64,000 nt of DNA from Clytia hemisphaerica (Eukaryota; Cnidaria; Hydrozoa; Leptothecata; Clytiidae), in contig CACVBU010001190.1 of the NCBI GenBank assembly GCA_902728285.1, forward strand, positions 62,001 to 126,000, given 5' to 3'. The notes below the pieces were generated by a model. That model did not search any database, had not been told where the DNA came from, and saw only the letters and a list, made by a program, of their open reading frames with translations. A program made the translations under genes and the position numbers. Of this stretch, positions 5,664 to 64,000 are shown piece after piece; the stretch's first letter is position 1, and each line of letters starts with the position of its first letter.

Positions 5664-6399
5664 CGTTCCGTAACCTTTATAGGATTGTAAGGAAGGCACA
5701 CTCTATTTTAGCTTTTGATAAAGTACACCAAAAGGTTTTCCAAGACGTGCCGTTAGTGGGCTTTCGCAAGGGGAAAAGTCTTAAAGATATGTTGGTTCGC
5801 GCGAAAGTCCCCCTACCTTGGGGGATGATAACAAAGGCCAGAGTGAACCATGTCTTGGAAAACGCTGTGGTGTTTGTCCTTCAGTTAAGAATACATCAGA
5901 GTTTGCTTCTAGGAATGGAAAGATATACAACATTCGTGGGTTATCTATGAACTGTAGCTCATCCAATGTTGTATACCTTCTTAGATGCAAAACCTGCGGT
6001 ATTCAGTATGTCGGTAGTTGCACGACTCCTTTTAGAACAAGGTTCAGTAATTATAAATCGTGTAACAAATATCACAAGGACAAAACTGTGCCACAACAAG
6101 AACTTCACAAACATTTTGACCTACCTGGTCATTCCGGTTTTGCAGATTTTGAATACACTTTTATTGACCAGGGAAGTAGCCTTGAAGATGTCAGGAAGAG
6201 AGAACGTTTTTGGCAATATAAACTTAATACGTTCCTTCCTCACGGGTTGAACGTGAAGTTGTTGTTCCGGATTAGGCCATTTTTTGAACTCCTCAGTTTT
6301 CTGGGGATAACTGATGCTAGTATTGAGCTTATACTGCGGTCATTTGGTTATGACCGGTCGTTTTTGGGAGAACGCCCTTCTTTGGACTGCTTGGTATGA
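5664..6399 (+). pseudogene. GIY-YIG endonuclease of Penelope-like element, frameshifted fragment
   Basis: The GIY-YIG nuclease nicks DNA to prime reverse transcription of Penelope-like elements. The first part (FRNLYRIVRKAH... VGFRKGKSLKDMLVRAKVP) is the linker after the RT. The frame then shifts by one base near 5808, in the run of C's before TTGGGGGATG. The second part, open to 6399, contains the zinc-binding CLGKRCGVCPSV, then the nuclease core NVVYLLRCKTCGIQYVGSC with TRFSNYK and the helix ELHKHFDLPGHSG. The RT domain is absent because of 5' truncation, so the copy cannot be autonomous. Confidence 0.85.
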
Positions 6400-18421: not shown

Positions 18422-18499
18422 CTATATTCATGTTTGAGAATGACAATCTTTCATATAACCTACAATATTTCCCCCTTTTAGCAATGATTAAACTATCAG

Positions 18500-33030: not shown

Positions 33031-33493
33031 AACACTTTTCCCATAGGTGTAGTTGGAACATCTCATAGCCCAGTTAAGGCAGTCCAAATAAGAGAAGGAA
33101 AACTCTGATATAACACCAGCTGGAGAAAACCAGTTTTTAAATCTCACTCTGTTGCAGGTAGAGTGATAGGGGCCACTAGGCAGTTAGCATCTAATAGTTA
33201 ATCTGGTTTTTGTCCCTCTTCTGCTTAGTTCTTGAATTAAGGAGATATCTCTCGAGTTAGTTGAGTACTGCCCCACCCATGGGAAAATGGGTATGTAGCC
33301 GTTGCGCAGCACATACTATTTTAGCAATTGAAAAGATAATGGATTCTACACCAAACAGCACCAGGGTCCGGGATCAATCGGTTGTCCTTCAGGACACGCC
33401 CTTGATCCCCGGGCAAGCCCCTGATTTTATCATTTTTCTCTCTTTGATACCATAACGGGATCCAATGATGGAGAGATCTTCACCCCCAGTTCC

Positions 33494-34507
33494 TTGGGGA
33501 GGATTTCTTCTGACAAGAAAGAACCTGATCACCAAAAACAAAACAAATTACTGAGATGTACCAATCTCTTGAAAATTAGTACTTTCAATGTTCGAACCTT
33601 GAATGGACCTACACAAATAAACGAGCTCGTGCGTTCAATGTCTGAAAATTCCATAGACATGATTGCAATCCAAGAACATCGCATTTTTCACCCTGCTGAT
33701 AACCTTCTGTATTCTTCAAACTCTACTTTTCAACTTATTACATCTTCAGCAACCAAAAACTCTGTTAATGCTACGGTGGGAGGAGTAGGTCTTCTTCTTT
33801 CTTCCAAAGCTAAAAATAACTTGATTAAGGTAGAATCTATCACGCCTAGAATTTTGATTGCTGAGTTCTCAAGCAATCCAGTTTTATCAGTTATTTGTGT
33901 CTATAGTCCACACAATAGCGCCCCCAAAGAGGAAGTTGAGGAATTCTATTTGGAACTTAAAAATGTACTCGACGATATACCAAGACATAATTTCATAAGC
34001 ATTGCGGGTGACTTTAATGCGAAGCTTGCATGTCCCGATGTCTCTTTCTCCTTTAATAAGCACACTAATCGCAATGGCGAATACCTCTTAGATCTGATTG
34101 ATGAATACGGACTTTTCTCCTCAAATAACTATTTCATGAAATGTGCCAATCACCTTTGGACATTCCAATATCCAAATGGCGATAAAGCTCAAATTGACTA
34201 TATTCTCTTTCGTAAAAAATGGAGGAATAGTATTAAAGACTCCAGAGCATATTCCTCATTCTCCACTGTTAGCTCTGATCATCGTATTGTTTCCTCAAAT
34301 ATCAAATTGAGCCTTCGTGCATCAAAACACTCGAAGCCACACCCTCTGAAGAAAATCGATTGGAAGGAATCTTCTCTCAATCCTGAAATCCGTAACAGAT
34401 TTACTGTCGAAGTATATAACCGCTTTTCTCATCTTTTCATTGAGGATCTAAATAAAGACAACATTGAAGATGCTTATTCCAGTTTGATTGAAACCACTGA
34501 AAAATAG
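33494..34507 (+). pseudogene. LINE endonuclease domain
   Basis: APE-like endonuclease nicks target DNA to prime reverse transcription. Visible active-site blocks are LKISTFNVRTLN (Asn), IAIQEHRI (Glu), SIAGDFNAKL (Asp and Asn), AQIDYILF and SSDHRIVSS (Asp-His pair). The frame ends at TAG 34505-34507, but coding similarity resumes at once in another frame (ALEQLPRKRKEN), so this is a frameshift in one ORF2 and not a true terminus. Confidence 0.85.
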
Positions 34508-36400
34508 CTCTCGAGCAGCTTCCTAGGAAAAGAAAAGAAAACATCTCAAACTCGAAAGACATCCCGTCTGTCATTGCAGCAAGAGAAAATCTCAAACTTG
34601 CAGCATCTCTCTACAACAATGTCCCTACGCGCAGGCGAAAGGCAAATTTAGATTCTTGTAAAGCTAAACTTGACGAGGCCTACCTAGAAGCCAAAATATC
34701 CTTTATAAACGGCAAGATAAACTCCATGTCTGAATACTTCTCGCATAACTCTCATCGAAATGCATGGAGCCTAGTCAGAGAGCTTAGTGGAAAAAATTCA
34801 AAACCCCCCATTCAATTAAAAGGCGGATCCACTGCGAAACGTCTAGATAATTTGCTCAATCATTTTAAAAATCTTCTTGGCAAAAAGCCAATTCTCTCTG
34901 AAAATAATTCTCTACCCAGGGAACAAATATCTCCGCCTTTGGACATTCCTCTTTCTCCTTTCACTTTAAAAGAATTAACAAAGGTCCTTTCCCAAACTAA
35001 ATCTTGTAAAGCTTTCGGTCCAGATAACATTCCACCTATTATCTGGAAAGACGAAAACTTCCACAGTTTCCTTCTTAATCTCTGTAATATCGCGTTCGAA
35101 GAAAATGTTTGCACAAATCATTGGCTAAAATCTCATATCATTCCTGTTCCGAAAAAGGGAGACCTCACTCTTGCTGTACTAACTATCGTGGTATATCTCT
35201 TCTTCCAATAGCGGCCAAGATTTACAACAAACTTTTACTCAATAGGATTAGGTCTAAAGTCGAACCCATTCTTCGTAAAAACCAAAATGGTTTTCGTAGT
35301 GGGCGCTCCACACTAACACAAATCCTATCCCTTCGTCGCATACTTGAAGAAGCCAGGAATTTCAATCTCGACGCTATACTTGTATTTGTTGACTTTAAAA
35401 AAGCTTTCGATTCAGTTGATCGAGATAAAATGTTTGATATCCTCTCACTATATGGCATTCCCTTGAAAATCATTAATGCCATCAAGCTTCTTTATACAGA
35501 CACCAAATCTTCTATCCAGACTACAGACGGCGAGACTGATACTTTTCCCATCTTAGCAGGTATCTTGCAAGGTGATACCCTCGCCCCGTTTCTTTTTATT
35601 TTAGTTGTAGATTACATCATGCGTGTTTCTGTTGATAAAATCTCACAATGTGGTTTTCTACTTAAACATAAACTTGGGCCTCGTAGTCCAGCGACTTATC
35701 TCACTGATACAGACTTTGCTGATGATATAGCTCTAACCAGTTCTAAGCTTTCAGACGCTCAAAAATTACTAAATGCACTAGAATCGGCTGCAAATTCCAT
35801 AGGCTTACATCTTTAACGAATCAAAAACCGAGTTTTTCAGTCTCAATCCCATTGATCCTTCCGAAAGTATCAGAACTGTTGCAGGAATCAAATTAAAGAA
35901 AGTTGACGATTACAAATACTTAGGCTCCTATATTTCGTCATCTGAAAAAGATTTTAAGATTCGCAAAGCACTTGCCTGGAGTGCGTGTAACAAACTACAC
36001 AAAATTTGGACATCTTCTCTTCTTGACTCTAACCTTAAGATTAAAGTTTTTAAATCCACCATAGAACCTATCCTTCTTTATGGTTCGGAAACGTGGTCCT
36101 TCACACGTAAATTAGAAAAACAACTCGATGGAACATGCACACACCTTCTAAGAAGAGTTAAAAATCTTTCCTGGCGCGATCATCCCACTAAAAACACCAT
36201 CTATGGTTCGATTAAGCCTATCTCAAACATCTTAAAGGCTAGACGTGTTCAGTTTGCTGGTCATTGCCTTCGTGCATCCACAGAAGTCATCTCCTCTCTC
36301 TTACTCTGGAAACCCAAGCGGCTGGTTCAAAGATCGAGAAAGTTAACTTTTACTGACGCAGTTAGGGAAATTGGACTTCATTATAGTGACCTGGAGACTG
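34507..36400 (+). pseudogene. LINE reverse transcriptase and C-terminal region, frameshifted
   Basis: Continuation of the same ORF2 across three frames. RT blocks: SCKAFGPDNIPP, then a frameshift near 35190, NYRGISLLPIAAKIYNKLL, NQNGFRSGRSTLTQIL, motif A FVDFKKAFDSVDR, motif B GILQGDTLAPFLFI and motif C TDFADDIAL. A second shift near 35815 leads into the thumb-like DDYKYLGSYIS and the C-terminal ILLYGSETWSF and LRRVKNLSWRDH. The YGSETW pattern is usual in RTE/CR1-related LINEs. It is not functional as it stands. Confidence 0.83.
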
Positions 36401-36480
36401 CCATGCGCGACCGCGATTCTTGGCGCCAGAGAGGGTGGAATCCATCATCTCGACCGCGGTCGAAAGATGATGATGATGAT

Positions 36481-37684
36481 CTATATCGATCGACGAAACG
36501 TCCATATACAGTGTTACATATACTTTCTTTTACACCCCTGTATCTTAACTAAATTCGGAACAGGTTTGAAGGAAAAATAATCACTTTTGATTAAAAAAGT
36601 TCTTAAGAAAAATTCAAAATTGGCGTCTGTACAGGGTGTGTTTTTCTTTTCCGAAGCTCTTATCCTTCTTGCATTTCTTATACTCTTACAAAATTGGCTC
36701 TGATATTTACTCCTCATTCCTGAAGGGTTGCTTTTTTTTATCCGTCCTGTCTTTTGGTCATTCTTTTTCCGTAAATCCAACGAATAGCATACCGTAGTGA
36801 TTCTAAAAATAGACATCAAAATTACTATTTGTCCGAGTTTTAATCCCATCATCCCTTGCATTAATTGCTTTTGCAAGTCAATTACACTTATTGACAATAC
36901 AAAAGTAACAACTTGCACGCATTACGAATCAATATGAAACGGATTGTGGGATTGAATTTCGGTCAAAAACCAAAAGTAATAATTATGACGTTTGCATACC
37001 GGTGTGCTATTGTAGAACTTATTTCAATTAAATTTTTCTTATAAAAGAAACGCACTTGAACAATCCTTGACCCCCTGATCGTAAAATTGATGATTACAGT
37101 TTAACGACGAATGATTTTATTGATTTCTTTTGAGGCACTTTTATGACACCAGTCTTGTTATTAACATGATTAGTTTTCGTATGGGACATTAGGAAGCAGA
37201 ACTTCAGCTGAGATCCTTCAGTTACAATGGTTGATTGATTTAACATGTAAGCATTGGTAATTATCCAATTTATGCATCGAAACGTCTCTTCGTTTTGAAA
37301 TGTAATCTAGCAACTTCAATCGAAGAATACGGAAGAACGAAAAAGTGTACGAGCTGCGGATTTCGACCCAGCAAGGCCTCGTCTTTCTTCTTTCGAACTT
37401 TCTAGAAATCGCATCGTAAGACAACGTCAATCGCCCAAGCGTGGGGGTTTATTGGAGTGACCTAATTATTTTCATTTTTTCATCTTCATCTTCGCAACAA
37501 ATTATTCAATCGGGCTTGTTTTGCTTGATTAACGTGTAGTTTACCATTTTGAACATTCCCTGAAAAAATGAAAGAAAACGAAGCAATCAACGTGGAGAAA
37601 ACGTAAATAAACAAAGCTGTTGCAAGTTAAGTCCGTGTTGCAAGTTATGGCCGTTTACGGTATACATGTGCAGTAGACTCGTTT
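36481..37684. other. Intergenic stretch with one MITE
   Basis: No gene apart from the MITE at 36783-37011. The short frames are AT-rich and unrecognised. Confidence 0.5.
36783..37011. mobile_element. MITE family C, copy 1
   Basis: Inverted ends AATAGCATACCG and CGGTGTGCTATT. The internal segment GGATTGTGGGATTGAATTTC is also present at 43062-43081 inside the larger copy 42896-43791. Confidence 0.65.
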
Positions 37685-38019: not shown

Positions 38020-40147
38020 ATATATATATAAAATTTACTGTATCCCTATTCCTAGGTTAAACAGAGATAGAGAGATGTGCAAGGAGAGGAAACCTGGGAT
38101 AAGTCCCTGTTTTCTCAGTCACACATCTCTCCATCAAATTCTAATTCTTGCCCTTAAGGGCAAGAGTGCAAAATTCATCAATAGAAATATCTAAGTTATC
38201 TAAGACCTGGTCGAGTAGAGTTCTCACAGGCCTTCCTCTCTTTGTATATTTATCATCGTTAAAAGCCAGCTGCTTGATTGAACGTTCCGCGTTCATTCGA
38301 ATAACATGTGACATATAGTTCTTTTGTTGATCTCTTATAAAAAATTCTAAGTCACGTGTCTGACAAATTTCGTGCAGATGTTGATTAGATATAATCAAAC
38401 GATAATCGTTTTCAGTCGGATTTACAAACTTTCGACCATTACGTATCATTCGTCGAAGAAACGAACGATAACTAACATTCAATCTTTCAAATTGATTTTT
38501 TGTTAGATTCCAGTTTTGACACGCGTATGTAAGCCGACTTCTCACAAAACTATTGAGGAAGTTGATTCGGGTGCGAAGGTTGATTCGTTGATTTTGAAGG
38601 AGATTAGACATTTCGTTGAATTTAGCAGATGCCATTTGAATGCGATTATTGACTTCTGCATTTCCGGTATTAGGCTCGTCATGACTAATTATCGATCCAA
38701 GGTATGTGAATTTGGTGACGTTTTTGATTGGTGTCTCGTCGAGTGAAATGATTGTGTTGTGATAGTGTTGTTCAAGAATTTGGTGATTCAGAACCATAGT
38801 TTCTGTTTTGAGTTTGTTAACTAATAGCCCAAAACTACCGAAAACTTGGTTTAGAAGTTCAGAACCAGATAAAAGACTTTCTTTGTCAGTAAAGAAAAGT
38901 ACTAAATCATCCGCATACCCAATCCATGAGAGTTCCGCTTGTCCAGACGTTTGGATGTTTTTATTTCGTATTTGGTACCGCTGTGTTCGGGTGAGACTTT
39001 TCAAGTTGATGCGATATTTGTGCTTGAAAAAGTTGATATCATTTGATTTTTCTTTGAAGAGTCTCATGACAAAGTCAATATAGAGATTGAACAAGAAGGG
39101 ACTTTCTGGTCCTCCTTGTCGAACACCAGATGAGGTTTGAAACGTTTTATTTGCATCTTCGTAAGTTAGACTTGTATTTTGATAAAGTTTTTCAAGAATG
39201 TCGAATAGTGGGGTGATTGACGGTTATCGAATCGCAAACGAATCGATTCGAAAAGCCAGTCTCGAGGGATGTGGTCGAATGCTGCCGTCAGGTCGACGAA
39301 AAGGAGAAAAAGGGGCTGTCTTTTTCGATCAGTAATCTGTTGGATCCGTTTAATTGTGTATATTCCTTCAGTTGTTCCCCTATCTTTCCGAAAACCATTC
39401 TGTTCGTCGCTTAGTTGTAGCTCGTACCAAGGACGAAGTCGATCGAGAATTAAATTGATCAAGAGTTTACAAACGGTTGAGCCAACACTTATCCCACGAT
39501 ACTTTTTGGGGTCTTTTTTGGATCCTTTCTTTTTCCATATGGCTTGCAGACGGGAATTCCCCCATGCAGTCGGGACGTCAAAATTTTCCCAGAGATTTGA
39601 AGACATTCTGTGTATCACTTGGAGCATAACTGGATGATCGAGCCGTTTGATTAGAGTAGGGTCAATATCGTTGAAAGCTCTATCGACTTTAAGTTTCGTA
39701 ATTTGTTGACTTATCTCGTCAGTATCAGGGGGTTCACTTTTGATGTTTGTTGTAGCTGAAATTTGTCGAAGTTGTGTAACATAGTGGGGAAGATCATCAT
39801 TCGATAGTTCGATTGGCCTGTTTTGTCGTTGGGTAGGGTTGAAGTGAGATTTGAAGTGATTGAGAAGACTTTGGGTTGGACAAGAAGCTTGAATATTTGA
39901 AAGAGTGCTACTTTGCTCTTTTGCCCGTTTGAAAAGTTTTTGTAGGTTGCGATTAATTGCTAGCTGGTTCAATTTTTCAGCTTCTGTTTTCAGATACTCA
40001 TTCTTAAGAAAACGTGCTCGTAATCTGATCTTTTTACGAAGTTTTTGAATATCTGCGGAGTCAATGTTTTTTGTCATCAATTTGTCTTTTTGTTGGTATA
40101 GATTATCTAATTTTTCATCGTTGTGCCATGGGTGAATTATACGGTTT
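38020..40147 (-). mobile_element. 5'-truncated LINE inserted in the Helitron
   Basis: Minus-strand LINE with an ORF2 fragment and a TATATATATA 3' tail at 38020-38031. It interrupts the Helitron between the CSNC and GEEL codons. The two flanks (AACTGT, AGTTGT) are only loosely alike as a target duplication. Confidence 0.82.
38141..40147 (-). pseudogene. LINE reverse transcriptase ORF2 fragment, frameshifted
   Basis: From about 40147 the frame reads through a basic helical segment (KLRKKIRLRARFLKNEYLK) into the RT: KKDPKKYRGISVGSTVCKLL, QNGFRKDRGTTEGIYTI and motif A LFVDLTAAFDHI. A frame break between 39166 and 39094 removes the motif B area. The second part has motif C WIGYADDLVLFF, then thumb VTKFTYLGSIIS and the C-terminal region RLTYACQNWNL. 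The endonuclease is lost through 5' truncation. It differs from the 33-36 kb LINE (YADD versus FADD, different C-terminus). Confidence 0.83.
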
Positions 40148-40602
40148 TTGGTCAGTTGTGGTGAAGAATTAATTCGTCAATGTAGTATATTTTTGAATTA
40201 CATTTCAGAATTAAACTTAAATCCTTTAGATGACTTCAATAATTGGCAAAATCTTTTAAACCCAGTTATGATTGATAAATCAATAATGTGCAGTAGTTGT
40301 GGGAATATTTCTCACAATACATCGCTAGTGTCATTTGTTGCAACCTTGTAGAATTTGGAGGTGATTGTGATATAGAATTTGGACAGAATTTGGTTTTAAA
40401 TGATCAAAACTATGTCCTGAGAGGTCTTGTTAGGCATAAAGGGGACCACTTTTCATGTGCTGTATTAGATGATAATAATTGGTTCTATATTGATGCTTTA
40501 CATGAAAAAACATTTTGTTGCGAAAGCTTGCGTCAACTTTATGAGATTCAAAAAGATGGATGGTTTTTTTGCATTTATATACATAAAGGAAAAAATTTCT
40601 GA
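40148..40602 (+). pseudogene. Helitron cysteine-protease-like (USP-type) module
   Basis: It contains a zinc-ribbon-like CSSCGN and, after a frameshift at about 40340, the segment NYVLRGLVRHKGDHFSCAVL with WFYIDAL. This resembles the His box and Trp-Asp pattern of ubiquitin-specific proteases (C19). The catalytic Cys box was not identified. Cysteine protease domains (OTU or USP type) are known passengers in animal Helitrons. The frameshift makes this copy inactive. Confidence 0.6.
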
Positions 40603-45449: not shown

Positions 45450-47418
45450 CTATTCAGTGCAACACTTGTTGATAAAAGTAATTATGAATGCGTACGATGT
45501 AAAAGAGATAAAACTCGGCCAAAGAAATTTAGTATTGAAAATGATATGATTCCAAGTAAAGTTCCACTGGAACTGCAAGGTTTAACACAGGTTGAAGAAA
45601 TGCTTATTGCTAGAGCATTTCCCTGTTATTCAAGTTTATACTAAGCCAAATGGAGGGCAAAAAGCTTATAAAGGACATGTTCTAACTTTACCTCATGATG
45701 TTCAGCACATTGCTAGTGTTTTGCCAAGATATCCCAGTGATATACCAGTTATCGTTTTTAAAATTGACGGGAAAGATAACAGATCAAGAGACCTAAGAGT
45801 GCGGAGACAAAAAGTTCTTGATGCATTAGTGTGGCTAACCGGAAAGAATAGTATGGGGGAACCAAATAACCCAAGGTACCAAAATGTGACTATTGATAGA
45901 AGTAGATTTGATTAATTGCCTGACGATGATTATTTGCAAATGCCAATGAATGTAGACTTCAATCAAGAAGAGGTTGAAGATGATGATTTAGATAATGAGG
46001 GAATTCTTCCTGATTTTGGTCCAAATTCTGAGGATAGTGAAGAAAAAGTTTATGATTGCAATACTGAAATGGGGAGTTTTATTCCAATTAAAGTTAAAAC
46101 TAAGAAAGAAAAAGATATAATTGATGATTCAATTTTGAATCCAGAATCTGTTAAGATAGGCAACGAGCCTTTAAATGAGTTCACTACAGAGTATTTGGCT
46201 ACTTTAGCTTTTCCAACACTTTTCCCAGATGGTAAAGGAGATCCAACCAATTCAAGCATCAGAAAGTCTATTGCTAAAAGTGATACAGAATCCTTTTCTG
46301 AAAAGATTAAACATTTGATAAAATTTGCTGGAATGATAGATGGGAAATGGGTATACAGATTTGCAGCCGGTCCTCGATTTGGGTTTTGAGCTTACAATAT
46401 GCTTTATCGTAGACGTCTGTTTGGACAAGGAAGTTTTTACTTAAAGCAAAATCCAGGAGAAGCTAATTTGACGATTAATGAATTACAGGATATGGTTAGA
46501 GAAGGTAGTCATGCTACAATCATGAAAAAGCTAATGAGATATGCGAAGAATGTAACAGGTACAAATGCGTACTGGAATCATGCTAAAGAAGAATTAAAAG
46601 CTACAATTAGTCAGGTTGGTTCTCCAACAATTTTTTGGACTCTGTCATGTGCTGAATTCCATTGGCCAGAATATCATGCATTATTTTCAAATGATAATGA
46701 TAGCTCAAGTGATACATTGCGAGAAAATATTATTAATAATCCTCATTTGATAGACTGTTTTTTTACTGTCAGAGTTGAAAACTTTGTTAAACTTTGGCTT
46801 TATGAGACTTTAGGTGCTGAATGGCACTGGTACAGATTTGAATATGCTGTTATGAGAGGCTCTATCCACTGTCATGGGGTAGCAAAACTTAAAAATGACC
46901 CAGGATTGTGCTCTCTTACTCAAAAGGCTTTAGAAGGACATATAGCTGAGAAAGAATTACTAGATTCTGAATTTGAAGATAATGTTAGAGTGGAGCTTGA
47001 AACTAAAGTCAATGAAGGAAAAGGAGCAGAAAAGGAAGTTACTGAATATGTTGATTCTATTGTGACAGCGTGTAACCCCTGTACTCCTGAAGAAGGCTGG
47101 GTAAAACCGAAAGTGCACCCATGCAAAAAAAAAGTTGAAGACATTAATGAAAATGAGCTTGACGATGATTATGCAAATTTAGTAAATAGTGTTCAGAGGC
47201 ATACTAAGTGCAGTACAGCCTATTGCTTACGTAAAAAGAATGATGATGAACAATATTGTAGATTCAATTTTCCTTTTGAGGATTGCAATGAAACTTATAT
47301 TGAATTTGAGGAATTGAATTCAAAGAAATATGGTAAGCAGTACAGACCAAAAATTGTATTGAAAAGAAACGACTCAAGAGTAAACAGGCATCAGAGATTG
47401 CAATTGCAATCATGGAGA
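45450..47418 (+). pseudogene. Helitron DUF6570-like and Rep N-terminal region with HUH-type motif
   Basis: Order: a Cys pair CVRCKRDK, then PLELQGLTQVEEMLIARAF and GGQKAYKGHVLTLPHDVQ (DUF6570-like). Next come NEFTTEYLATLAFPTLFPDG and NMLYRRRLFGQGSFYLKQ (Helitron_like_N), GSPTIFWTLSCAEFHWPEYH, and the nuclease His motif RGSIHCHGVAKL. Rep nicks and joins DNA during rolling-circle transposition. Lesions: a one-base shift near 45620, TAA at 45913-45915, and TGA at 46387-46389 where a Trp is expected. The frame ends at the third insertion (47418). Confidence 0.87.
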
Positions 47419-48717
47419 TAGGGTAGATCGTCAACTACCATTTTTAGCATGATGTCAGAAAATTCAAAGTGTAATATTTTTTTGTGAAAATTTAATCTAT
47501 TGTAAGACATTTTGCGCAATTTTTAACCTCCTAGGTCAAAAATCCAGCATTCCCCAGGGGGGTCTTTGATTCGCACTAAAGCGAAAAATGAGTAAAATGG
47601 CATTTTTTGCCCATTTTAAGACTATGAAAGCCCAGTAAAGGGTCAAAATGGTTTCTAAATGGTTTCTTGTACTAATATTCAACATAAAAAGACAAAATAA
47701 CCCCAGCGAGATCGCTCGTTGTTTCAATTTCAAGCTAAAAAAGTTGATTTTCTCTGATTCTGGGTAGCAAAAGACATGAAAGCAGCATTTTTGAGGACCC
47801 ACAACTTTTAAACTTTTTAAGGTACACACTTGAAATTTTCAGTAATTTAACAATTCAGAGAAAGCTCCAAGAAAATGCTAAATGCTAAATGCCAATATTT
47901 CAAGCTAAAACTTGGTTTTCTCAGGCTAAAATCTCAAAAATGGTTTCAAATGGTGTCCTGAAATCTTTTGGTGTTGAAAGTATTCTGAAAATACTCTGGG
48001 AGAAACAAAATGGTTTGGGTCAGAAATTCGCCCAAGTCTGCCATTATGGTATTGCATTTCCCACTAAAACACGATATTTAGAGTTAAAGTCTGATTTTCT
48101 CAGGCTAAAATCTCAAAAATGGTTTCAAATGGTGTCCTGAAATCTTTTGGTGTTGAAAGTATTCTGAAAATACTCTGGGAGAATCAAAATGGTTTGGGTC
48201 AGAAATTTGCCAAGTCTGCCATTATGGTATTGCATTTCCCACTAAAACACGATATTTAGAGTTAAAGTCTGATTTTCTCAGGCTAAAATCTCAAAAATGG
48301 TTTCAAATAGGGTCCTAAAATTTTTTGGTGTTGAAAGTATTCTGGATATACTCTGGGAGAACCAATATGGTTTGGGTTTGAAATTTGCCTAAGTCTGCCA
48401 ATATGGTATTGCATTTCCTACTAAAACGTGATATTTAGAGTTAAAGTCTAATTTTCTCAGGCTTAAATCTCAAAAATGGTTTCAAATAGGGTCCTGAAAT
48501 CTTTTGGTGTTGAAAGTATTCTGGGAACAATCAAGGAAAATCATGCCATTTTTACTCATTTTTCGCTTTAGTGCGAATCAAAGACCCCCCTGGGGAATGC
48601 TCGATTTTTGACCTAGGAGGTTAAAAATTGCGCAAAATGTCTTACAATAGATTAAATTTTCACAAAAAAATATTACACTTTGAATTTTTTGACTTTGCCA
48701 TTTGACGATCTACCCTA
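47419..48717. mobile_element. 1.3-kb inverted-repeat element with internal tandem repeats
   Basis: Termini TAGGGTAGATCGTCAA and its complement, extending to inverted repeats of about 190 bp (47419-47610, 48530-48717). ATGGAGA at 47412-47418 and 48718-48724 is a 7-bp target duplication. No transposase is present. Confidence 0.9.
47925..48525 (+). repeat. Tandem repeat, about 179-bp period, 3.4 copies
   Basis: Units start at AAATCTCAAAAATGGTTTCA (about 47929, 48108, 48288, 48467) and contain TTGGTGTTGAAAGTATTCTG and ATTGCATTTCCCACTAAAAC. The last unit is cut short by the right inverted repeat. Divergence grows toward the right. Confidence 0.85.
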
Positions 48718-49040
48718 ATGGAGAGCTAATTGCGATATACAACCAATTATTGATTACAATGCATGTTTAGAATATCTTGCTAAGTATGCCTCAAAGGCAG
48801 AAAAAATATCAGATGTTGCTCGAGACGCTTTTGTTTCTGTTGCTGAAAATTTAAAAGGAACTGAACAAATGAGATGTGTTATTCAGAAATTAATGATTAG
48901 AGCTGTCGGGGAAAGAGATTTTAGTATACAAGAGGTAATGCACCATATATTATCATTAAAACTGGTCAGTTCATCTTTTCAAGTTGTTAATGTTTCGGTT
49001 GACGGATCTCGAAAGGTTGAAATCAATAATGAGGATGTCC
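48718..49040 (+). pseudogene. Helitron Rep catalytic tyrosine segment
   Basis: Resumes with RANCDIQPIIDYNACLEYLAKYASK, which carries the paired-Tyr motif of Helitron Rep (YLAKY). It continues MRCVIQKLMIRAVGERDFSIQEV. The frame breaks near 49035 (VPY stop versus SLTEASTVDNYANR in the next frame). Confidence 0.8.
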
Positions 49041-50899
49041 CTTACTGAAGCTTCAACTGTTGATAATTATGCTAACAGAGCTAACCTTGAAGGATGTGAT
49101 GCATTCGTTTTAGATAGCAATTTTATGCAATTTGTTTCAAACTATTCAGTGCAAAAAGATGTTTTGAAAAAACGTAAGAAGCCAGTTATTGTTAGAGCCT
49201 TCCCAACACCATCATTTGATCCAAAAGGGCCTCATTTTGATGTATTTTGCAAATACCAACTGCTAAAATACAAACCATGGAGGACCAGGATTAGTGATGC
49301 TTGGGATGGTTTAAATGAGGATGATACTGATATGTTTTGCCAAAAATGGAATGAGTTTTTGCAAACTGATTTAGGTCAAAGTGTTGTCCCTAATTGGAGA
49401 AGAGAATTTAATAATGCTGAATTATATTTTGAAAGGTCAGAAACTGATGAATTTGAAGAGAATGTTGAAGGGGAACGTGAAGAATGGATGCACTTAGCTG
49501 ATTTATGTGCGAATAACAATGAAACTAATCGAGATGAGCCATCTCATAACGATTTAGAATATTGGCAGTCTTGTAGAAATAATTACACTGAAGACCAGAT
49601 TGGAAATATGGTTTCTTGGCTTGACAAAAGAAAAGCCAAAATGTCTGAGAACCCAGTTGAACAAGTGTTTGAACTAAAAGTAGACTCCCTTAATGAGTCC
49701 CAAAGAAAAGCATTTGATATATTATTATATCATGATATGAATCAGAGAGATCAGCTATTCATGATGATTACCGGGTTAGCAGGGAGTGGAAAAAGTTACT
49801 TAATTAATAACATTAGAGCTTTACTGAAGGAGAAATGTATTGTATCAGCCTACTTTGGAATAGCTGCATTTAATATTAATGGTAAGACTTTGCATTCTTT
49901 ATTGAATCTTCCAATAAGAGGAAAAAACCGAAACGATTCGAAGGTTCTTACGCCTACAAGAAAGACTCAGTGGAGTTAAATATATGATTATTGATGAGTA
50001 TTCTGTTGTTGGTCAAAATATGCTAGGATGGATAGATAAACGGTGTAGACAAGGAACAGGTGAATCAGACAAAGCTTTTGGTGGAATATCTATAATCTTG
50101 GTAGGAGATATTGCTCAATTACCCCCTGTTGGAGATGAAATATTGTATCATAGGAAACCTAGAAGTGAAATTGGTACAATGGGTTTTTGCATGTTATTGA
50201 GATTAAGAAACGGTGATTCAACTGAGGAAGATTGGTTGATGTTCTTATCTAGGACACCTGCCAATTTGACTGACAATTTAAATTTAAAAGACTTTGTGAA
50301 ATTATCTTTTTCAAATGAGAAAGTTGCTTCCGATAACCATGAAGCATTGATGAGCTTAAATGTCCCAGTGGCACAAATTAATGCAAGACACAGTAATAAA
50401 GAATCAGCTAAACTTTCTTCAGACGACATGGGTGGATTAGAACCTAAGGTTTTTTTAAGCATCGGTGCAAGAGTAATGTTGACTAGAAACCTTTGGACAG
50501 ACCAAGGACTTTGTAATGGGTCAATGGGAATAGTTAAAGATATTATTTATCAAGAAGGAGATTCTCCTCCAAATCTACCTATAGCTGTTATTGTTCAATT
50601 TGACTCTTTTTATAAAGGACCAAGTGTATGCGAAGACCAGCCTCGCTGTGTTCCGATTATTCCTTTAACAAATTCTTCAGACCTTCGCGGTACATCGCAT
50701 GAGCGACAACAACTACCTTTGAGATTGTCTTGGGCAATAACTATTCACAAGTCTCAAGGATTAACTTTGAATAAAGCATGGATTGATTTAGGAAATGGAG
50801 CCAATGACATTAGAGCGATTACAAGATATTAAGAAAAGGAAAAATTTTAAATTTAGAGAATTAGAAGAACAAAATATTAACAACGGTTTGACACTAAAG
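49041..50899 (+). pseudogene. Helitron PIF1-family helicase, internally deleted
   Basis: A 5'-3' helicase that unwinds DNA for rolling-circle transposition. Visible motifs: FCKYQLLKYKPW at the Rep-helicase junction, Walker A GLAGSGKSYLI, a frameshift near 49950, DEAD-like IIDEYSVVGQ, motif III VGDIAQLPPVGDE, GARVMLTRNLW and the C-terminal LSWAITIHKSQGLT. Two in-line deletions are apparent: after GTMGFCM, where the Arg-containing motif IV region is lost, and after AWIDLGNG, where the usual FVALSR block is missing and the reading passes to PMTLERLQDIKKRKNFK in another frame, ending at about 50899. Not functional. Confidence 0.88.
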
Positions 50900-56654: not shown

Positions 56655-57218
56655 TCCAAATTGTTTTGCTGTTGAAAAAATGTTGTTCTTTAACCATTAT
56701 TACAAGCATACATTTCCATCGTGGGACTCCTTTCCTCTGCTATTCTTTCCCATGGCCATATGTCATCGAAACAAAAAAATAGAAAAAGACTGAATGTTAT
56801 CAATCTGATTAATCCAATGATGGAGGGTTTCTTCTCCATCGAAACAATACTGTACATCATCTGCATTTTGAATTATCAATCTAGAAACTTTCAAATACAT
56901 CTCTGAAAAATCTGCAACTTTTCAAAACAAAACTTCTGGATCGAAAATGATCGAAAAGTTTTGTTTTTGTGTGAATATTTTTAGCGGGAAGTTATCGAAT
57001 GTTTTTGTTCGAATCTAACGTTCGAATTAGAGTTTCGAATAAAAACATTCGAAACTACACAGAAGCAAAAGAAGGCGGAAGTAAGTTTTGAAACAAAAAG
57101 AGGACAATTTTTTTGAGTCGACAATAAATTAGTTATCACATGACTTCTCGTGCAATACTCGATATTTTACTCGTTCCGAGATTTTACCGATATTTTTCCT
57201 CGCCTAAAGGCTCGGCCC

Positions 57219-57577
57219 TTATTGGTATATATTTTCGCGTGTTACAAATTTTCGCGAATCGCGAAATTTTTTCGAAAAAACGTGCTTCGCGTGTATTAAA
57301 TTTCGCGATTGCAGACTTCTGGAAAATTTTCGCGTGTATTAAATTTCGCGATTCGGAATATAAAGCAAGAAAAAGACTGATTTTGCTTGAAACACAACGT
57401 TTTTGACGTAAAAATACTAACAAATTACTAAGAAAGAATTTTTCGCGTGTATTTAATTTCGCGATTTTGTAATTTTGAAAAATTTAAACAGTATTAAATT
57501 TCGCGAAAATTGACCAAAAAACTCGCGAAATTAAGTACCCGCGAAAATTTGTAACACGCGAAAATATATACCAATAA
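57219..57577. mobile_element. MITE with about 40-bp inverted ends (TTATTGGTATATATTTTCGCG)
   Basis: The left end TTATTGGTATATATTTTCGC plus GTGTTACAAATTTTCGCG is mirrored at 57539-57577. The interior repeats CGCGTGTATTAAATTTCGCG several times. It ends about 55 bp upstream of the helicase gene's TATA-like box. No target duplication was settled. Confidence 0.8.
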
Positions 57578-57632
57578 GCCATTCGATTGTTTTTTATTCC
57601 CTCCGCGAATTTTTGTAAAAACTTGTGTGACC

Positions 57633-57638
57633 TATAAA
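57633..57638 (+). promoter_or_regulatory. TATA-like box at the 5' end of the helicase gene
   Basis: TATAAA. It overlaps the first in-frame ATG (57638), so if it is the real TATA box the start of translation must be downstream or in another exon. Confidence 0.3.
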
Positions 57639-60600
57639 TGATCGAATTTTCTCTTCTCACACCACGCATCTTTATACAAGTGATAAGCTTGTATTGTGTG
57701 TTTGTGTTAAAATTAAAATGTAGTGAAACTTCAAGTGATGAGCGAGCCACTCTTCGTCAAAATGTTGCTGCCAAAAAGAATGCAAATAAAAAATTCAAAC
57801 CGAATAAATCATTTAGAGAAGTTCCTCTACAGAGGGCTTTGAAAACTTATGTCATTTCAAACATTGTGGATAGTTATAATGTTCTTGCAATAAGAGTGCT
57901 GTGGAAGGAGGAGAATTATTCGGATATGTTTACAAGAAGGCAAAATTTGGAGAATATATTCAGGGATATTGTTCCAGTTAAAGTGTTGATCAGCTGTGTT
58001 ACCGCAATGGAGAAGGGTGAAGAGTTAGATACGGGACTAAGTTTTTGGATGGCATTTGATTGGCCTGATATCACAGCAAACAAGTTCGAGAACATGCTAT
58101 GCAAAAAGGTTATGGAGTCTGGTGTTAAAATCGATTCGTGCAAGGGAGTCAAACCAAGAGGTATGTCTAACTCTTCGATAATTCAATCTTTATTTCACTG
58201 AATTATTCTGATAACTTGTTACAAAACTTAATTTTTATTACAATTTTTGGTCGATTTGTTACAACTTGATACAGCTTGATACGCTTTGTTACTGCTTGTT
58301 ACATACTTTTTACACGGAAAGTCGAATTTTGAGACAGTAATAACAGCATTTTTTACATATTTTGAAGATCTAAATTTTGTTACAATTTTTGGTCGATTTG
58401 TTACAACTTGATACAGCTTGATACGCTTTGTTACTGCTTGTTACATACTTTTTACACGGAAAGTCGAATTTTGAGACAGGGGTGGCAGCATTTTTTACAA
58501 ATTTTAAACATCTAAATTTTGTTACAATTTTTGGTCGATTTGTTACAACTTGATACAGCTTGATACGCTTTGTTACTGCTTGTTACATACTTTTTACACG
58601 GAAGGTCGAATTTTGAGACAGGGGTGAGAGCATTTTTTACAAATTTTGAACATCTAAATTTTGTTACAATTTTTGGTCGATTTGTTACAACTTGTTACAG
58701 CTTGATACGCTTTGTTACTGCTTGTTACATACTTTTTACACGGAAAGTCGAATTTTGAGACAGGGGTGACAGCATTTTTTTCAAGTTTTGGACATCTAAT
58801 TTTTGTTACAACTTTTGTTCGAATTGTTACAACTTGTTACAGCTTGTTACAGCTTGATACGCTTTGTTACTGCTTGTTACATACTTTTTACATGGAAAGT
58901 CGAATTTTGAGACAGGGATGACAGCATTTTTTACAAATTTTGAACATCTAAATTTTGTTACAATTTTTGGTCGATTTGTTACAACTTGTTACAGCTTGAT
59001 ACCCTTTGTTACTGCTTGTTACATACTTTTTACACGGAAGGTCGAATTTTGAGACAGTAGTGACAGCATTTTTTACAAATTTTGAACATCTAAATTTTGT
59101 TACAATTTTTGGTCGATTTGTTACAACTTGATACAGCTTAATACGCTTTGTTACTGCTTGTTACATACTTTTTACACGGAAGGTCGAATTTTGAGACAGG
59201 GGTGACAGCATTTTTTACAAATTTTGAACATCTAAATTTTGTTACAATTTTTGGTCGATTTGTTACAACTTGTTACAGCTTGATACGCTTTGTTACTGCT
59301 TGTTACATACTTTTTACACGGAAAGTCGAATTTTGAGACAGGGGTGACAGCATTTTTTACAAATTTTAAACATCTAAATTTTGTTACAATTTTTGGTCGA
59401 TTTGTTACAACTTGATACAGCTTGATACGCTTTGTTACTGCTTGTTACATACTTTTACACGGAAGGTCGAATTTTGAGACAGGGGTGACAGCATTTTTTA
59501 CAAATTTTGAACATCTAAATTTTGTTACAACTTTTGGTCGATTTGTTACAACTTGATACAGCTTGATACGCTTTGTTACTGCTTGTTACATACTTTTTAC
59601 ACGGAAGGTCGAATTTTGAGACAGGGGTGACAGCATTTTTTACAAATTTTGAACATCTAAATTTTGTTACAACTTTTGGTCGATTTGTTACAACTTGATA
59701 CAGCTTAATACGCTTTGTTACTGCTTGTTACATACTTTTTACACGGAAGATCGAATTTTGAAACAGGGGTGACAGCATTTTTTACAAATTTTGAACATCT
59801 AAATTTTGTTACAATTTTTGGTCGATTTGTTACAACTTGTTACAGCTTGATACGCTTTGTTACTGCTTGTTACATACTTTTTACACGGAAAGTCGAATTT
59901 TGAGACAGGGGTGGCAGCATTTTTTACAAATTTTGAACATCTAAATTTTGTTACAATTTTTGGTCGATTTGTTACAACTTGTTACAGCTTGATACGCTTT
60001 GTTACTGCTTGTTACATACTTTTTACACGGAAGGTCGAATTTTGAGACAGGGGTGACAGCATTTTTTACAAATTTTGAACATCTAAATTTTGTTACAACT
60101 TTTGGTCGATTTGTTACAACTTGTTACAGCTTGATACGCTTTGTTACTGCTTGTTACATACTTTTTACACGGAAGGTCGAATTTTGAGACAGGGGTGACA
60201 GAATTTTTTACACATTTTAATGCTTTTATTCTTTTTATTTCATAGGTGCATCGATCGGTCAAATTGAAAATCTAGCCGCATCCCAATTGTACATTACCCT
60301 GAAGGACCATAAATTAGCTGAGCCTCTCAAAAAGATTGTTTTGAATAAAATGCGCCTAGCAAGAGCGGAGGCCATCAACCGGGGCGAGGATGAAGACAGC
60401 ATCGAGATTCCTGTTGACGAGTCTGTAAAGCCTGTTAACATATATGTATCGTCAACAATTGCCAAAAATGTCCACGACAAATTATCGACAGAACTACCAC
60501 GTCTAAGACAGTTTAACCTGGACTTCGAACTTGACATGAGAAACTCTTCAAGTAAGTAATTTTAAATTACATCATTGCAACTATCTCAAGTTGATTATCA

Positions 60601-63093
60601 TAGGAGGAAAGTGAGTTTTTACATCAAATTTTTTACTTCTATTTTAGACAAGGCTCCGAAAGAAGTTGCAAAGCCTAGAAGCAGACTGAACCAAGCCATT
60701 GACGTAGTTGCTAGAGTTATGAAAGACGAAAAATGTGAACTGTTCAAAGGATATATCTATCGACATGTTCCAGAATCGACCAGAACCTATTACCACTATA
60801 AACCTGTCGAGGATTATGTCATGAGGATCCTTAAAAATTCATCAGTTGCGGATTCCTTATCTGGTCAAACATGGGACGTGATACGGCACTTGGAGAAACC
60901 TTCTTGTCGAATAGTGAAACAGATGAAAATGGACTACAACTACATCGAAATTAACGATGGCTTCTTTTTTAACATAGAAAAGAAGTGTTTCGAGCAGAAT
61001 CCAGCCCTGACCGGCTCCCCTAGAGCCTTTGTAATTTATAACCACAAAAAGCGTCCAAATCCAACACCATTTATGGAGGGTAAGCTTGTTTTTTTTCAGT
61101 TTTGTATCCTATCGACAGCTCAATAAAACACTGATTTGAACTCTCCTGTAATGATTTATTGGTAGTCGTGTTATATTGCCTCAGCTTCCTATTAGAACAA
61201 AACGAAATATCTTGCTTGATGGACACATTTTCATACTTTATATTACTACTTTGTTCCATTCAGGTATTATGAACAGCTTTCCCAATCCCATCATCAGAAA
61301 ACAGTTTCTGCAGAAATATTATCAATTGCTGATGCACAAAAAGTTTCCCAAGAAGGAGAGAAAGCTAATGCTGGTTGGCGACTCGGATTCAGGCAAAACT
61401 AGCTGGTTTTGTCCATTCGAAGGCATAATTCCATCGACCTTTATCAGCTATATCGTACCAGATGGACGTTTTTCTGCGTCAACTATCAAAAGCAACACCC
61501 AAATCGTTTGCATGGACGAGTGGAGTCCCGAATCACTGTCTTGCGAAGATGCAAAAAGACTTTTGCAAGGTAAAACCAAAATAAGATTCCATACACTAGA
61601 ATAAATAACCTAGTCGATCGTATAAACTTGGAAATGCAATTTTAAAAGTAAAAGAACAGAAAACAACTTGAACTATATTGCAGTTATTAAAAAGATGATT
61701 AAAGTTGATTAATTTTCTGATCGTTTTAGGTGGTCGCATCACTGTGCAAAAGAAACACAAGGGAGTAGAGAGTTTCCACTATAATTCTGGATTCTTTATT
61801 ACAACAAATGAAAATCCTGATTTTGGCCCTGGTAGAGACGGTAAAGCAATCAAAAAACGTATCTGTGAATTTGACACAATCGAGCTTCCGAAAGTGGATA
61901 CATCTATGAGCAGTAAGTAAATTCATTGTCAACTATCAAACCTGCCTGATAGAATAAAAAAACTTCATCTTACCCAACAACGAGTCGAGGTGTATTTTAT
62001 GCCCTGAGAGATTATCGTTTCAGAAAATAGCTGAGGAAAATGTATTTATTGATCAATATCATGATTTTATTTGTCAGTAAAAAATTACACTACTGTCAGT
62101 TTCACGTTGAACAATTGTCAAGTGTCTATATTGATCACAAAAATATTCGAAATACATTTCTTTAAATTGCTTTTAGATTGGCTACGCAAAAACTGCATGG
62201 AAGTTTTCCATTGGGTTGCGCTACAGCTCAAAGACGTACCAATATTCTCTTGTCCGATCAGAGAAAAAACAAAAGATGGTGCCTGCTACAACGACTTCGA
62301 TAATGAAAATCCTTTTTCATCTGACGATTCAGACGCTTTAGAATTTTCATTCACTCAGCCAACTGCTGCCGAAGAAGTTGCAAATGCCCAGCCAGGTCCT
62401 AGTCGGCCATCATCATCATCATCTAGATGTAAAACCTTTGAAGATGTGTTAGATGAAACATATTACATGTTGGAGAACTTTGACCGTTATGCTTCGAATC
62501 CAGATTATCAATACAGAGAAAAAGTTTACAAGTTGCTAAAAGAGTATCGAGAGGTGAGAGTTCCGATGCCGGATGAAATATTGAAGAAATATCGTCAGCG
62601 CTATGAATCTGATTGGCAAGGAGCAGACACCGTATACGATATGTTCTTATTAGGGAAGCAAAAAGAACGAAGCTGGTTCCCATATGAAATTTTTGAAGCA
62701 GAGTATCCTGACTACCAATCAATCATTGGCGCAATTATCGATGAACGCTCGACCGACAGGGCTTCAACTACAGACGAAGATAATGAACAACAGAAAAAGA
62801 CAGCACACAAATTTCAGACACAAACTCGTAAACTTTCTAAGAAAAAGAAGCGAGCTGTCACAGACCTTGATACTAGCTCAGATGATGAGAACGGTGCGTC
62901 GAAATCCACTCAAGGTGTTCCGGAGAAGAGAAAGAAAACAAGTGATGTTTGTGCCCCGATCAAGATCGAAATCCAATCTTCCCTTTCTGACACAAACTCA
63001 GATTCATCAAATCAAACGAAGGGGTCAAAACGAACTATGAAGAGATACATACCGAAAAACATTGTTGACGAAGTCGTAATCATCAGTGATTGA
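57638..63093 (+). CDS. SF3 helicase gene, six exons, Rep/NS1-like
   Basis: Superfamily 3 helicases are hexameric ATPases that open replication origins of small DNA viruses and replicons. Exons: 57638-58160, 60246-60551, 60648-61079, 61264-61569, 61730-61912, 62177-63093. All introns are GT-AG and phase 1; total 888 codons. Walker A GDSDSGKTSW (459-468), Walker B VCMDEW (D505, E506), motif C FITTNENPDFG (N549) and a downstream Arg (KKRICEFD, R566) are intact. Residues 115-197 resemble a Rep/HUH nickase fold but carry GLSFWMAF where a His pair would be expected; YITLKDHK (190-197) may match the catalytic-Tyr region. Residues after about 612 are acidic, Ser-rich and disordered, with a nuclear-signal-like KLSKKKKRA (about 801). 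The N-terminus is uncertain: ATG 57638 overlaps a TATA-like box, and TAG at 57721 could be an acceptor. Endogenous virus relic, mobile replicon or domesticated host gene are all possible. Confidence 0.82.
58240..60235 (+). repeat. Iteron-like minisatellite in helicase intron 1, 14 units of about 142 bp
   Basis: Each unit contains TTGTTACAA, an 11-bp spacer TTTTGGTCGAT, then five consecutive 10-mers of the form TTGWTACNNN, then an A/T-rich tail with CACGGAAAGTCGAATTTTG. The unit length varies little (141, 142, one of 152). The 60-residue open frames over it are by-products of the repeat. Confidence 0.93.
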
Positions 63094-63114
63094 AGTTAAA
63101 TTTTACTAAAATTT

Positions 63115-63243
63115 TAAAAACGAAAAATAATTCATTGAAATTTTAAGATGTTATGTCTTCCATTCCTCAAACTCGTCTTTATTTGAAATTACCAATTTAA
63201 ATTGAACATTAAAATTAAGATAAAGAACCTTTTTTTTTATTTC
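63115..63243. other. 3' flank of helicase gene before the second array
   Basis: AT-rich, with no canonical AATAAA; AAATAATTCATTG near 63125 is the nearest poly(A)-signal-like sequence. Confidence 0.4.
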
Positions 63244-64000
63244 CTATGAAAACTTGTAACAAGGTGTATCAAGGTGTAACAAGCTGTAACAACATGTAAC
63301 AAATAGACCAAAACTTGTAACAAGGCTTTTTTTCGAACTTTTCCTATGAAAACCTGTAACAAGGCGTATCAAGGTGTAACAAGCTGTAACAACATGTAAC
63401 AAATAGACCAATACTTGTAACAAGGCTATTTTCGAACTTTTCCTATGAAAACTTGTAACAAGGTGTATCAAGGTGTAACAAGCTGTAACAACATGTAACA
63501 AATAGACCAAAACTTGTAACAAGGCTTTTTTCGAACTTTTCCTATGAAAACCTGTAACAACGTGTATCAAAGTGTAACAAGCTGTAACAACATGTAACAA
63601 ATAGACCAAAACTTGTAACAAGGCTTTTTTTGAGCTTTTCCTATGAAAACTTGTAACAAGGTGTATCAAGGTGTAACAAGCTGTAACAACATGTAACAAA
63701 TAGACCAAAACTTGTAACAAGGCTATTTTCGAACTTTTCCTATGAAAACTTGTAACAAGGTGTATCAAGGTGTAACAAGCTGTAACAACATGTAACAAAT
63801 AGACCAAAACTTGTAACAAGGCTTTTTTCGAACTTTTCCTATAAAAACCTGTAACAACGTGTATCAAAGTGTAACAAGCTGTAACAACATGTAACAAATA
63901 GACCAAAACTTGTAACAAGGCTTTTCTTGAGCTTTTCCTATGAAAACTTGTAACAAGGTGTATCAAGGTGTAACAACCTGTAACAACCTGTAACAAATAG
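63244..64000 (-). repeat. Second iteron-like array, about 98-bp units, opposite orientation, runs off the window
   Basis: At least seven units. Read on the minus strand each has TTGTTACAAG, a spacer TTTTGGTCTAT, then five 10-mers TTGTTACATG, TTGTTACAGC, TTGTTACACC, TTGATACACC, TTGTTACAAG, and a linker TTTTCATAGGAAAAG. Same cassette as intron 1, inverted. The 250-residue minus-strand frame is a repeat artefact. Confidence 0.93.

What the first reader, a model, noticed from the sequence alone, without database searches (positions are those of the whole stretch)
57638..63093. Initiator-type SF3 helicase encoded as a spliced gene in an animal genome
The sequence shows intact Walker A, Walker B, motif C and Arg-finger positions, in a gene with five GT-AG introns. 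SF3 helicases belong to small DNA viruses and related replicons, not to standard host replication. An intact, intron-rich copy means either a domesticated gene or an intron-bearing mobile replicon. Both would be worth describing.
Basis: partly seen in the sequence, partly recalled or inferred. Interest (0 to 1): 0.88.

Follow-up and report, generated by a model that had tools for sequence, protein, structure and literature searches.

The report
Integrating replicon-like mobile element in jellyfish
The "viral-type" helicase gene is one of two genes of a repeated mobile element in the jellyfish Clytia, which pairs it with a DNA-integrating recombinase and long arrays of short DNA repeats, so it looks like an integrating plasmid living in an animal genome.

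The parts
57218..57578 (.). MITE-like inverted-repeat element with perfect 39-bp arms (CTTATTGG...CCAATAAG): the target into whose end the element is inserted
   Evidence: 39-nt arms, 100% complementary; 6 of 6 non-tandem left ends examined abut such a repeat, arms matching 21-24 of 24
57575..57578 (.). TAAG core shared by left end, right end and tandem junctions (recombination core, inferred)
57579..64000 (+). left 6.4 kb of element 1; continues on the contig to about C820:130,325 (window = C820:62001-126000)
   Evidence: five-copy comparison
57718..58160 (+).
58161..60245 (+). intron 1 (2085 bp, GT-AG), nearly all tandem array
58229..60218 (+). 142-bp x14 array; TTG(T/A)TAC units mostly every 10 bp (53 of 82 spacings exactly 10): iteron array, forward orientation
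60246..60551 (+). SF3 gene exon 2
60648..61079 (+). SF3 gene exon 3
61264..61569 (+). SF3 gene exon 4: Walker A 61377-61400, Walker B 61500-61523
61730..61912 (+). SF3 gene exon 5: motif C 61792-61815, Arg-finger position near 61858
62177..63093 (+). SF3 gene exon 6: end of helicase domain, conserved C-terminal block, low-complexity tail
63240..64000 (-). 99-bp array with the same iterons inverted (GTAACAA, 10-bp steps); continues to C820:126413, then an inverted 142-bp array to C820:126839, then the recombinase gene on the minus strand (C820:127503-129609, outside the window)

Best explanation
The SF3 gene belongs to an autonomous two-gene DNA element of Clytia. A C2H2/tyrosine-recombinase/Myb protein cuts and joins the element at a short core (TAAG), excising it as a circle and inserting it at the ends of resident MITEs or beside another copy. 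The SF3 protein, which has an N-terminal domain without HUH nuclease residues and a hexameric-type SF3 ATPase, binds the phased iteron arrays, opens the DNA and drives replication of the circle with host polymerases, so that one copy becomes many. Shown here: gene pair, arrays, ends, core, target, tandem copies, catalytic residues kept, recent copies. Inferred: circle, iteron binding by the SF3 protein, extrachromosomal replication.
For: Dispersed copies: the six pairs among C820, C340, C18 and C630 are 97.3-99.5% identical over 2.5-3.7 kb of the right half. SF3 helicase fold; tyrosine recombinase fold with R, R, K, R, H, Y invariant in 35 of 35 aligned proteins and kept in element 1. 33 of 123 merged SF3 loci have a listed recombinase within 12 kb against 0.7 expected by random placement, 28 of them downstream and convergent. 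Inverted iteron arrays on both sides of exons 2-6 in all five copies. Repeat words differ by SF3 subfamily: TTGTTAC, CTTGTTCC, CTTATCAC, CTTATCCC, TAGCCCTG, GCCCGTC. Element 1 and the C352 element share the recombinase at 77% but not the helicase (33%) nor the word. TAAG at every junction read except the cut right end of C18; exact head-to-tail 10.33-kb units at C730; 6 of 6 non-tandem left ends at a MITE end.
Against: No circle, transcript or protein was observed. 90 of 123 SF3 loci had no listed recombinase within 12 kb (93 of 461 recombinase candidates scored, query from another subfamily), so part of the copies may be fragments or differ. Recombinase-only units exist (C321), so SF3 is not needed for mobility. 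That unit has a 4-copy 48-bp array and a few TTGTTCC/GGAACAA words near its end, and element 1 has three GGAACAA there, so the word of element 2's arrays may partly belong to the recombinase. At C339 the array lies on one side only and is not phased at 10-11 bp; at C850, C180, C793 and C468 only one side was fetched. The recombinase gene is cut in the C643 and C630 copies. The window copy is damaged at its SF3 start.
Confidence: 0.69

Rival explanations
1. A Crypton-like tyrosine-recombinase transposon that captured a helicase gene as cargo; the arrays are minisatellites or recombinase sites and SF3 does not replicate the element.
For: Recombinase-only units exist and share an end with SF3-bearing elements; such a unit also carries small tandem arrays with words like those of element 2; Cryptons are described with 4- or 6-bp terminal direct repeats and proposed circles (PMC3212892, passages).
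Against: In element 1 the arrays lie on both sides of exons 2-6, inverted, in five of five copies, also on both sides in element 2 at C820 and, as short blocks in the same orientation, at C352; element 1 and C352 differ in word although their recombinases are 77% identical; SF3 is under amino-acid constraint between subfamilies.
Confidence: 0.16
2. An endogenised small DNA virus (RepE1-type cressvirus or parvo/papilloma-like virus) that amplified in the genome; the arrays are its origin and the recombinase a later acquisition.
For: SF3 helicases are typical of such viruses; RepE1 cressviruses apparently integrated in sea anemone genomes are reported (PMC11071296, section 12 read); models match parvovirus and papillomavirus helicases; weak PPV_E1_C and Parvo_NS1 hits.
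Against: No capsid-like gene was recognised in the 10.7 kb (Pfam only); five spliceosomal introns; no confirmed relative in IMG/VR for SF3 or recombinase in three pattern-based scans; diverged subfamilies keep the SF3 + recombinase pair.
Confidence: 0.12
3. A domesticated host helicase gene duplicated by chance.
For: Public gene model present; amino-acid constraint.
Against: Dispersed copies with the same ends at different loci, partner recombinase, tandem stacking.
Confidence: 0.02

Closest known systems
Cryptons (tyrosine-recombinase DNA transposons)
   Same: Eukaryotic tyrosine recombinase with catalytic residues kept; short direct repeat at the ends (4 or 6 bp reported in PMC3212892; TAAG here); no terminal inverted repeats noticed when the two ends were compared by eye.
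   Different: PMC3212892 (passages) describes animal Cryptons as encoding a recombinase without a C-terminal domain. Here C2H2-like and Myb parts, an SF3 gene and iteron arrays are added; no DUF3504 hit at E 0.5 in any of 35 proteins.
RepE1 cressviruses / papillomavirus E1 / parvovirus NS1
   Same: SF3 helicase behind an N-terminal domain of beta-alpha-beta-beta-alpha-beta-alpha order (the comparison is recalled); apparently integrated RepE1 forms in sea anemones (PMC11071296).
   Different: No capsid gene recognised; no H-x-H in the first 260 residues of 8 of 8 proteins checked; introns; tyrosine recombinase partner; no confirmed relative in viral contigs.
Bacterial integrating plasmids and SaPI-type phage satellites (functional analogue, recalled)
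   Different: Animal host, spliced genes, no significant sequence match to solved structures for the helicase; packaging or transfer functions not seen.
Helitrons
   Same: Replicative eukaryotic DNA elements with a helicase.
   Different: Helitrons use HUH Rep plus PIF1 (recalled; RepHel in PMC6431247 passages); a Helitron lies separately at 45.9-50.8 kb in this window.

Membership tests
SF3 helicase | Walker A, Walker B, motif C and Arg finger in one AAA+ core | tested here: met
   motifs at P0001 435, 476, 520, 539; G435, K441, D481, E482 invariant over the 12- and 16-protein alignments
SF3 helicase | SF3 fold | tested here: met
CRESS/parvovirus Rep | HUH nuclease motif and catalytic Tyr | tested here: not met
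   no H-x-H in the first 260 residues of P0001, P0002, P0003, P0005, P0007, P0010, P0011, P0012; the Y of LYITLK is C in P0007, P0010 and P0012
CRESS/parvovirus Rep | Rep-type N-terminal fold | tested here: inconclusive
   strand/helix order fits, but the domain was not fold-searched alone
Endogenous virus | capsid or other virion gene | tested here: inconclusive
   only SF3, recombinase and a small ORF found in element 1; the small ORF has no Pfam hit and no fold test
Tyrosine recombinase | fold and R-K-H/N-x-x-R-H-Y residues | tested here: met
Crypton | element encodes only a tyrosine recombinase | tested here: not met
   SF3 gene in the same element; recombinase-only units also exist
Crypton | short terminal direct repeat as recombination core | tested here: met
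   TAAG at both ends and at tandem junctions; use as core is inferred
Crypton | recombinase belongs to the Crypton/DUF3504 clade | tested here: inconclusive
   no DUF3504 hit at E 0.5 in 35 proteins; no tree made
Iteron replicon | initiator binds its iterons | not testable with these tools
   only indirect: words differ between SF3 subfamilies
Iteron replicon | extrachromosomal circle | not testable with these tools
   head-to-tail units at C730 are compatible

The most novel reading that the evidence does not exclude
A class of animal mobile element that is an integrating plasmid in all but name: its own SF3 replication initiator, its own iteron origin arrays carried in an intron and between convergent genes, and its own tyrosine recombinase that parks it at MITE ends, with the replication module (SF3 plus matching iterons) exchanged between recombinase backbones as in phages and bacterial integrating elements.
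Probability: 0.57. Interest if true: 0.92.

Novelty: new variant of a known kind. Interest (0 to 1): 0.85.

Why it matters
Known animal DNA transposons mostly move by cut-and-paste or rolling circle and borrow host replication. An element with its own initiator helicase and iteron origin would be a native episome-like replicon in an animal genome. It would make three questions testable: whether animals tolerate autonomous extrachromosomal replicons, how E1/NS1-type helicases without a nickase moved between viruses and transposons, and how new initiator/origin specificities arise, since several subfamilies with different arrays coexist in one genome.

Tried and rejected
For these the best explanation went from 0.72 to 0.69, the cargo rival from 0.13 to 0.16, the novel case from 0.60 to 0.57 and interest from 0.86 to 0.85.

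Domesticated single-copy gene: rejected by dispersed copies with shared ends. Endogenous virus: no confirmed relative in IMG/VR with the SF3 alignment A1, the distant SF3 protein P0012 or the recombinase alignment A3; these scans are pattern-based and can miss relatives. Retrogene: disfavoured by introns. Plain minisatellite in intron 1: disfavoured by the inverted partner array and subfamily-specific words. PDB by sequence gave nothing significant for SF3 (best E 0.48 and 0.19); for the recombinase the single sequence gave nothing (best E 0.11) and the profile's significant hits were at the Myb end. The N-terminal domain was not among the VIA rows; that is no evidence against a known fold. 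In one search the rows that pair C340 or C18 with other loci are invalid (minus-strand loci not turned) and are not used. In one search my first intron boundary for the recombinase gene was wrong; one search gives an open frame. In one search the nearest recombinase was taken, so C41 and the second C730 copy are counted as 'upstream' although one search also lists a convergent downstream partner for each; the random expectation there ignores clustering. Counting element-1 ends genome-wide by pattern did not complete.

Not in print: searches of the held open library returned no paper that, from the listed titles and abstract starts and the passages read, describes such a pair; one search listed 20 of 713 papers and 20 of 23. 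Subscription papers and Repbase were not searched. Papers: PMC11071296 (passages and section 12), PMC3212892, PMC6431247, PMC12440569 (passages); others seen only in search listings. The SaPI comparison and general iteron/transposon biology are recalled.
Full report
Identity of the window. The window is G000:C820:62001-126000 of a 417-Mb, 951-contig assembly. P0001, labelled Clytia hemisphaerica, has a longest contig of 1,878,164 bases, the length of contig C643 in G000; the same length match holds for P0005 and C850 and for P0096 and C352. The host is therefore the hydrozoan Clytia hemisphaerica.

The observation. Splicing at five GT-AG introns, all phase 1, gives an open frame of 888 aa. The start at 57638 is not the family's: other copies start at the ATG aligned with 57718, and the window copy has an 8-nt deletion directly after it. 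The four other near-identical copies keep all ten splice signals. Exons of C340, C18 and C643 align without indels (exon 1 from 57720 on); C630 has a one-base gap in exon 4, another in exon 6, and its exon 6 aligns over 799 of 917 bases before running into N.

The element. Five copies (C820, C340, C18, C643, C630) share one unit starting at window 57,579. Their right ends stop at the same sequence, ending in TAAG in four copies and cut back in C18. Right-half identity is 97.3-99.5% over 2.5-3.7 kb for the six pairs among C820, C340, C18 and C630; C643 is rearranged there and aligns in two pieces at 94.6-98.3% to C340 and C18, 96.3% and (through the arrays) 86.7% to C820. Beyond the arrays lies a convergent gene: 642 aa with one 178-bp GT-AG intron in the C820 copy. 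Its two exons align in full and without gaps in C340 and C18, but only partly in C643 (605 of 997 and 471 of 934 bases) and C630 (exon 2, 604 of 934). A small 122-codon frame of unknown role lies beside it. The C-terminus is Myb-like (nearest solved relatives by profile TRF1/TRF2). The family model (P0026, 35 sequences, mean pLDDT 71) matches XerA, XerH, Cre and lambda integrase by VIA-align; Foldseek's best hit is also XerA, at E 1.7e-3. Two arginines, a lysine, the NPTR/HPTR arginine, the KHSS histidine and the tyrosine are invariant in 35 sequences and kept in element 1. Hence it is a tyrosine recombinase.

Generality. The helicase query gave at least 168 places (150 of 365 candidates scored) and the recombinase query 100 places (93 of 461 scored). 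From the 150 listed SF3 rows I merged 123 loci and from 100 rows 90 recombinase loci; 33 of 123 SF3 loci have a recombinase within 12 kb against 0.7 expected by random placement, 28 downstream and convergent. This includes subfamilies only 32-41% identical in the helicase stretch. The count is a lower bound, because the recombinases of four of the five window-type copies were not listed. Recombinase-only units exist too: a 7,376-bp tandem unit at C321 has no SF3 and shares about 50 bp of left end with element 2.

Arrays. In element 1, intron 1 holds 11 to 26 copies of a 142-bp unit in the five copies, and a second 142-bp array (3.5-7.5 copies) lies inverted downstream in five of five, with a 99-bp array before it in four of five. 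The core is TTG(T/A)TAC, with 53 of 82 spacings exactly 10 bp in intron 1 and 32 of 46 in the window part of the downstream array. Other subfamilies have other words. Element 2 at C820 has CTTGTTCC, at 11, 21 and 32 bp among longer steps, inverted on the other side. C850, C180 and C793 have CTTATCAC and C468 CTTATCCC, in 3.3-kb loci that show one side only and weaker phasing. C352 has TAGCCCT blocks with the same steps (10, 11, 11, 33, 8) on both sides of the SF3 gene in the same orientation, plus an upstream 221-bp array with the inverse word. C339 has a 200-bp array with GCCCGTC and GCCCTTG on the upstream side only, without 10-11-bp steps. Element 1 and the C352 element are 77% identical in the aligned recombinase but 33% in the helicase, and their words differ. 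Element 1 and element 2 are 56% in the recombinase, 35% over the SF3 stretches and 59% in the helicase exon, where C352 has 41%. So the word goes with the SF3 gene in that comparison, and the two genes may have different histories; no tree was made. Against a clean split, GTTCC/GGAAC clusters mark the recombinase-side end of element 1 (10 seen, 0.9 expected) and of the C321 unit (11, 1.4), less clearly of element 2 (7 and 6 seen, 1.5 and 1.9 expected), and include GGAACAA/TTGTTCC words identical to those of element 2's arrays; the C321 unit has a 48-bp 4-copy array there. These may be recombinase or Myb sites.

Integration. TAAG is present at every junction read except the cut right end of C18: left ends, right ends, element 1 against element 2, and the C730 head-to-tail pair with a 10.33-kb unit. 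All 6 non-tandem left ends examined abut the end of a 287-452-bp inverted-repeat element whose arms match at 21-24 of 24 bases; positions drawn from the same flanks gave means of 13.7-15.0 and maxima of 16-22. In the window its arms are 39 bp and perfect. By arm sequence at least three MITE families are involved and the right flanks differ, so the insertions look independent. At C643 the MITE-plus-element is flanked by GTAC on both sides, as expected if the element entered an existing MITE; C730 has GTAC and GTAT, and the other four do not show it. The element's right end (GAAATTATATACATTAAG) resembles the MITE end (GAAAATATATACCAATAAG), like an attP/attB pair; this reading is inference.

Selection and age. 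In a helicase stretch of about 97 codons, pS is 0.70-1.0 and pN 0.06-0.31 between subfamilies (valid rows), so amino acids are constrained over long times, while the window-type copies are recent.

Mechanism and doubts. The parts fit excision and integration by the recombinase and replication from iterons by the SF3 protein. No circle, transcript or binding was measured, and a helicase carried as cargo cannot be excluded. The viral alternative is weakened by introns, no recognised capsid gene and no confirmed viral-contig relative, but RepE1 cressviruses apparently integrated in sea anemones are reported (PMC11071296), so the SF3 gene may have come from such a source. Cryptons, as described in PMC3212892, give the closest transposition mechanism; the whole works most like a bacterial integrating plasmid (recalled). 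I rate the novelty as a new variant because each module is of a known kind, although I found the combination in none of the papers listed by my searches.

Noticed in passing
window 45916-50832 (+): A Helitron (Helitron_like_N and PIF1 domains) lies upstream and is separate from the SF3 element.
   Followed up: partly
window 1-1841 (+): RT_RNaseH frame followed by a frame that by eye looks like a DIRS-type tyrosine recombinase (no Pfam hit).
   Followed up: no
window 5785-6399 (+): GIY-YIG nuclease domain, perhaps of a Penelope-like element.
   Followed up: no
window 33425-36552 (+) and 38141-40176 (-): Two non-LTR-type elements: endonuclease hit in the first, reverse transcriptase hit in the second.
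   Followed up: no
window 18488-21365 (+): Frames that by eye resemble a TMTC-type membrane protein of animals; the first frame had no Pfam hit at 1e-3.
   Followed up: no
C820:130322-142816 (beyond the window; L010, L011, L027): A second SF3 + recombinase element of another subfamily starts exactly where element 1 ends, sharing the TAAGG junction.
   Followed up: yes
L010:1058-1426 (-): Small 122-codon frame between recombinase and arrays; 97.5-100% identical in four of five copies and frame-broken or diverged in C643. Function unknown.
   Followed up: partly
right ends: C820:129610-130321, C321:938724-939200: GGAACAA/TTGTTCC words near the recombinase-side ends equal the repeat word of element 2's SF3 arrays; which protein reads them is open.
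   Followed up: partly
C-terminal tails of SF3 proteins (P0001, P0002, P0006, P0008): Tails end in short hydrophobic-plus-acidic motifs (such as VVIISD) that look like SUMO-interacting motifs; recalled resemblance, untested.
   Followed up: no
P0012 (ENA, 67 member sequences), P0009, P0013-P0016: Relatives from sources without an organism name; the SF3 family may extend beyond Clytia.
   Followed up: partly
C321:936504-966228: Four recombinase copies in two pairs, each pair 7,376 bp apart; the fetched unit has no SF3: recombinase-only or deleted derivative.
   Followed up: partly
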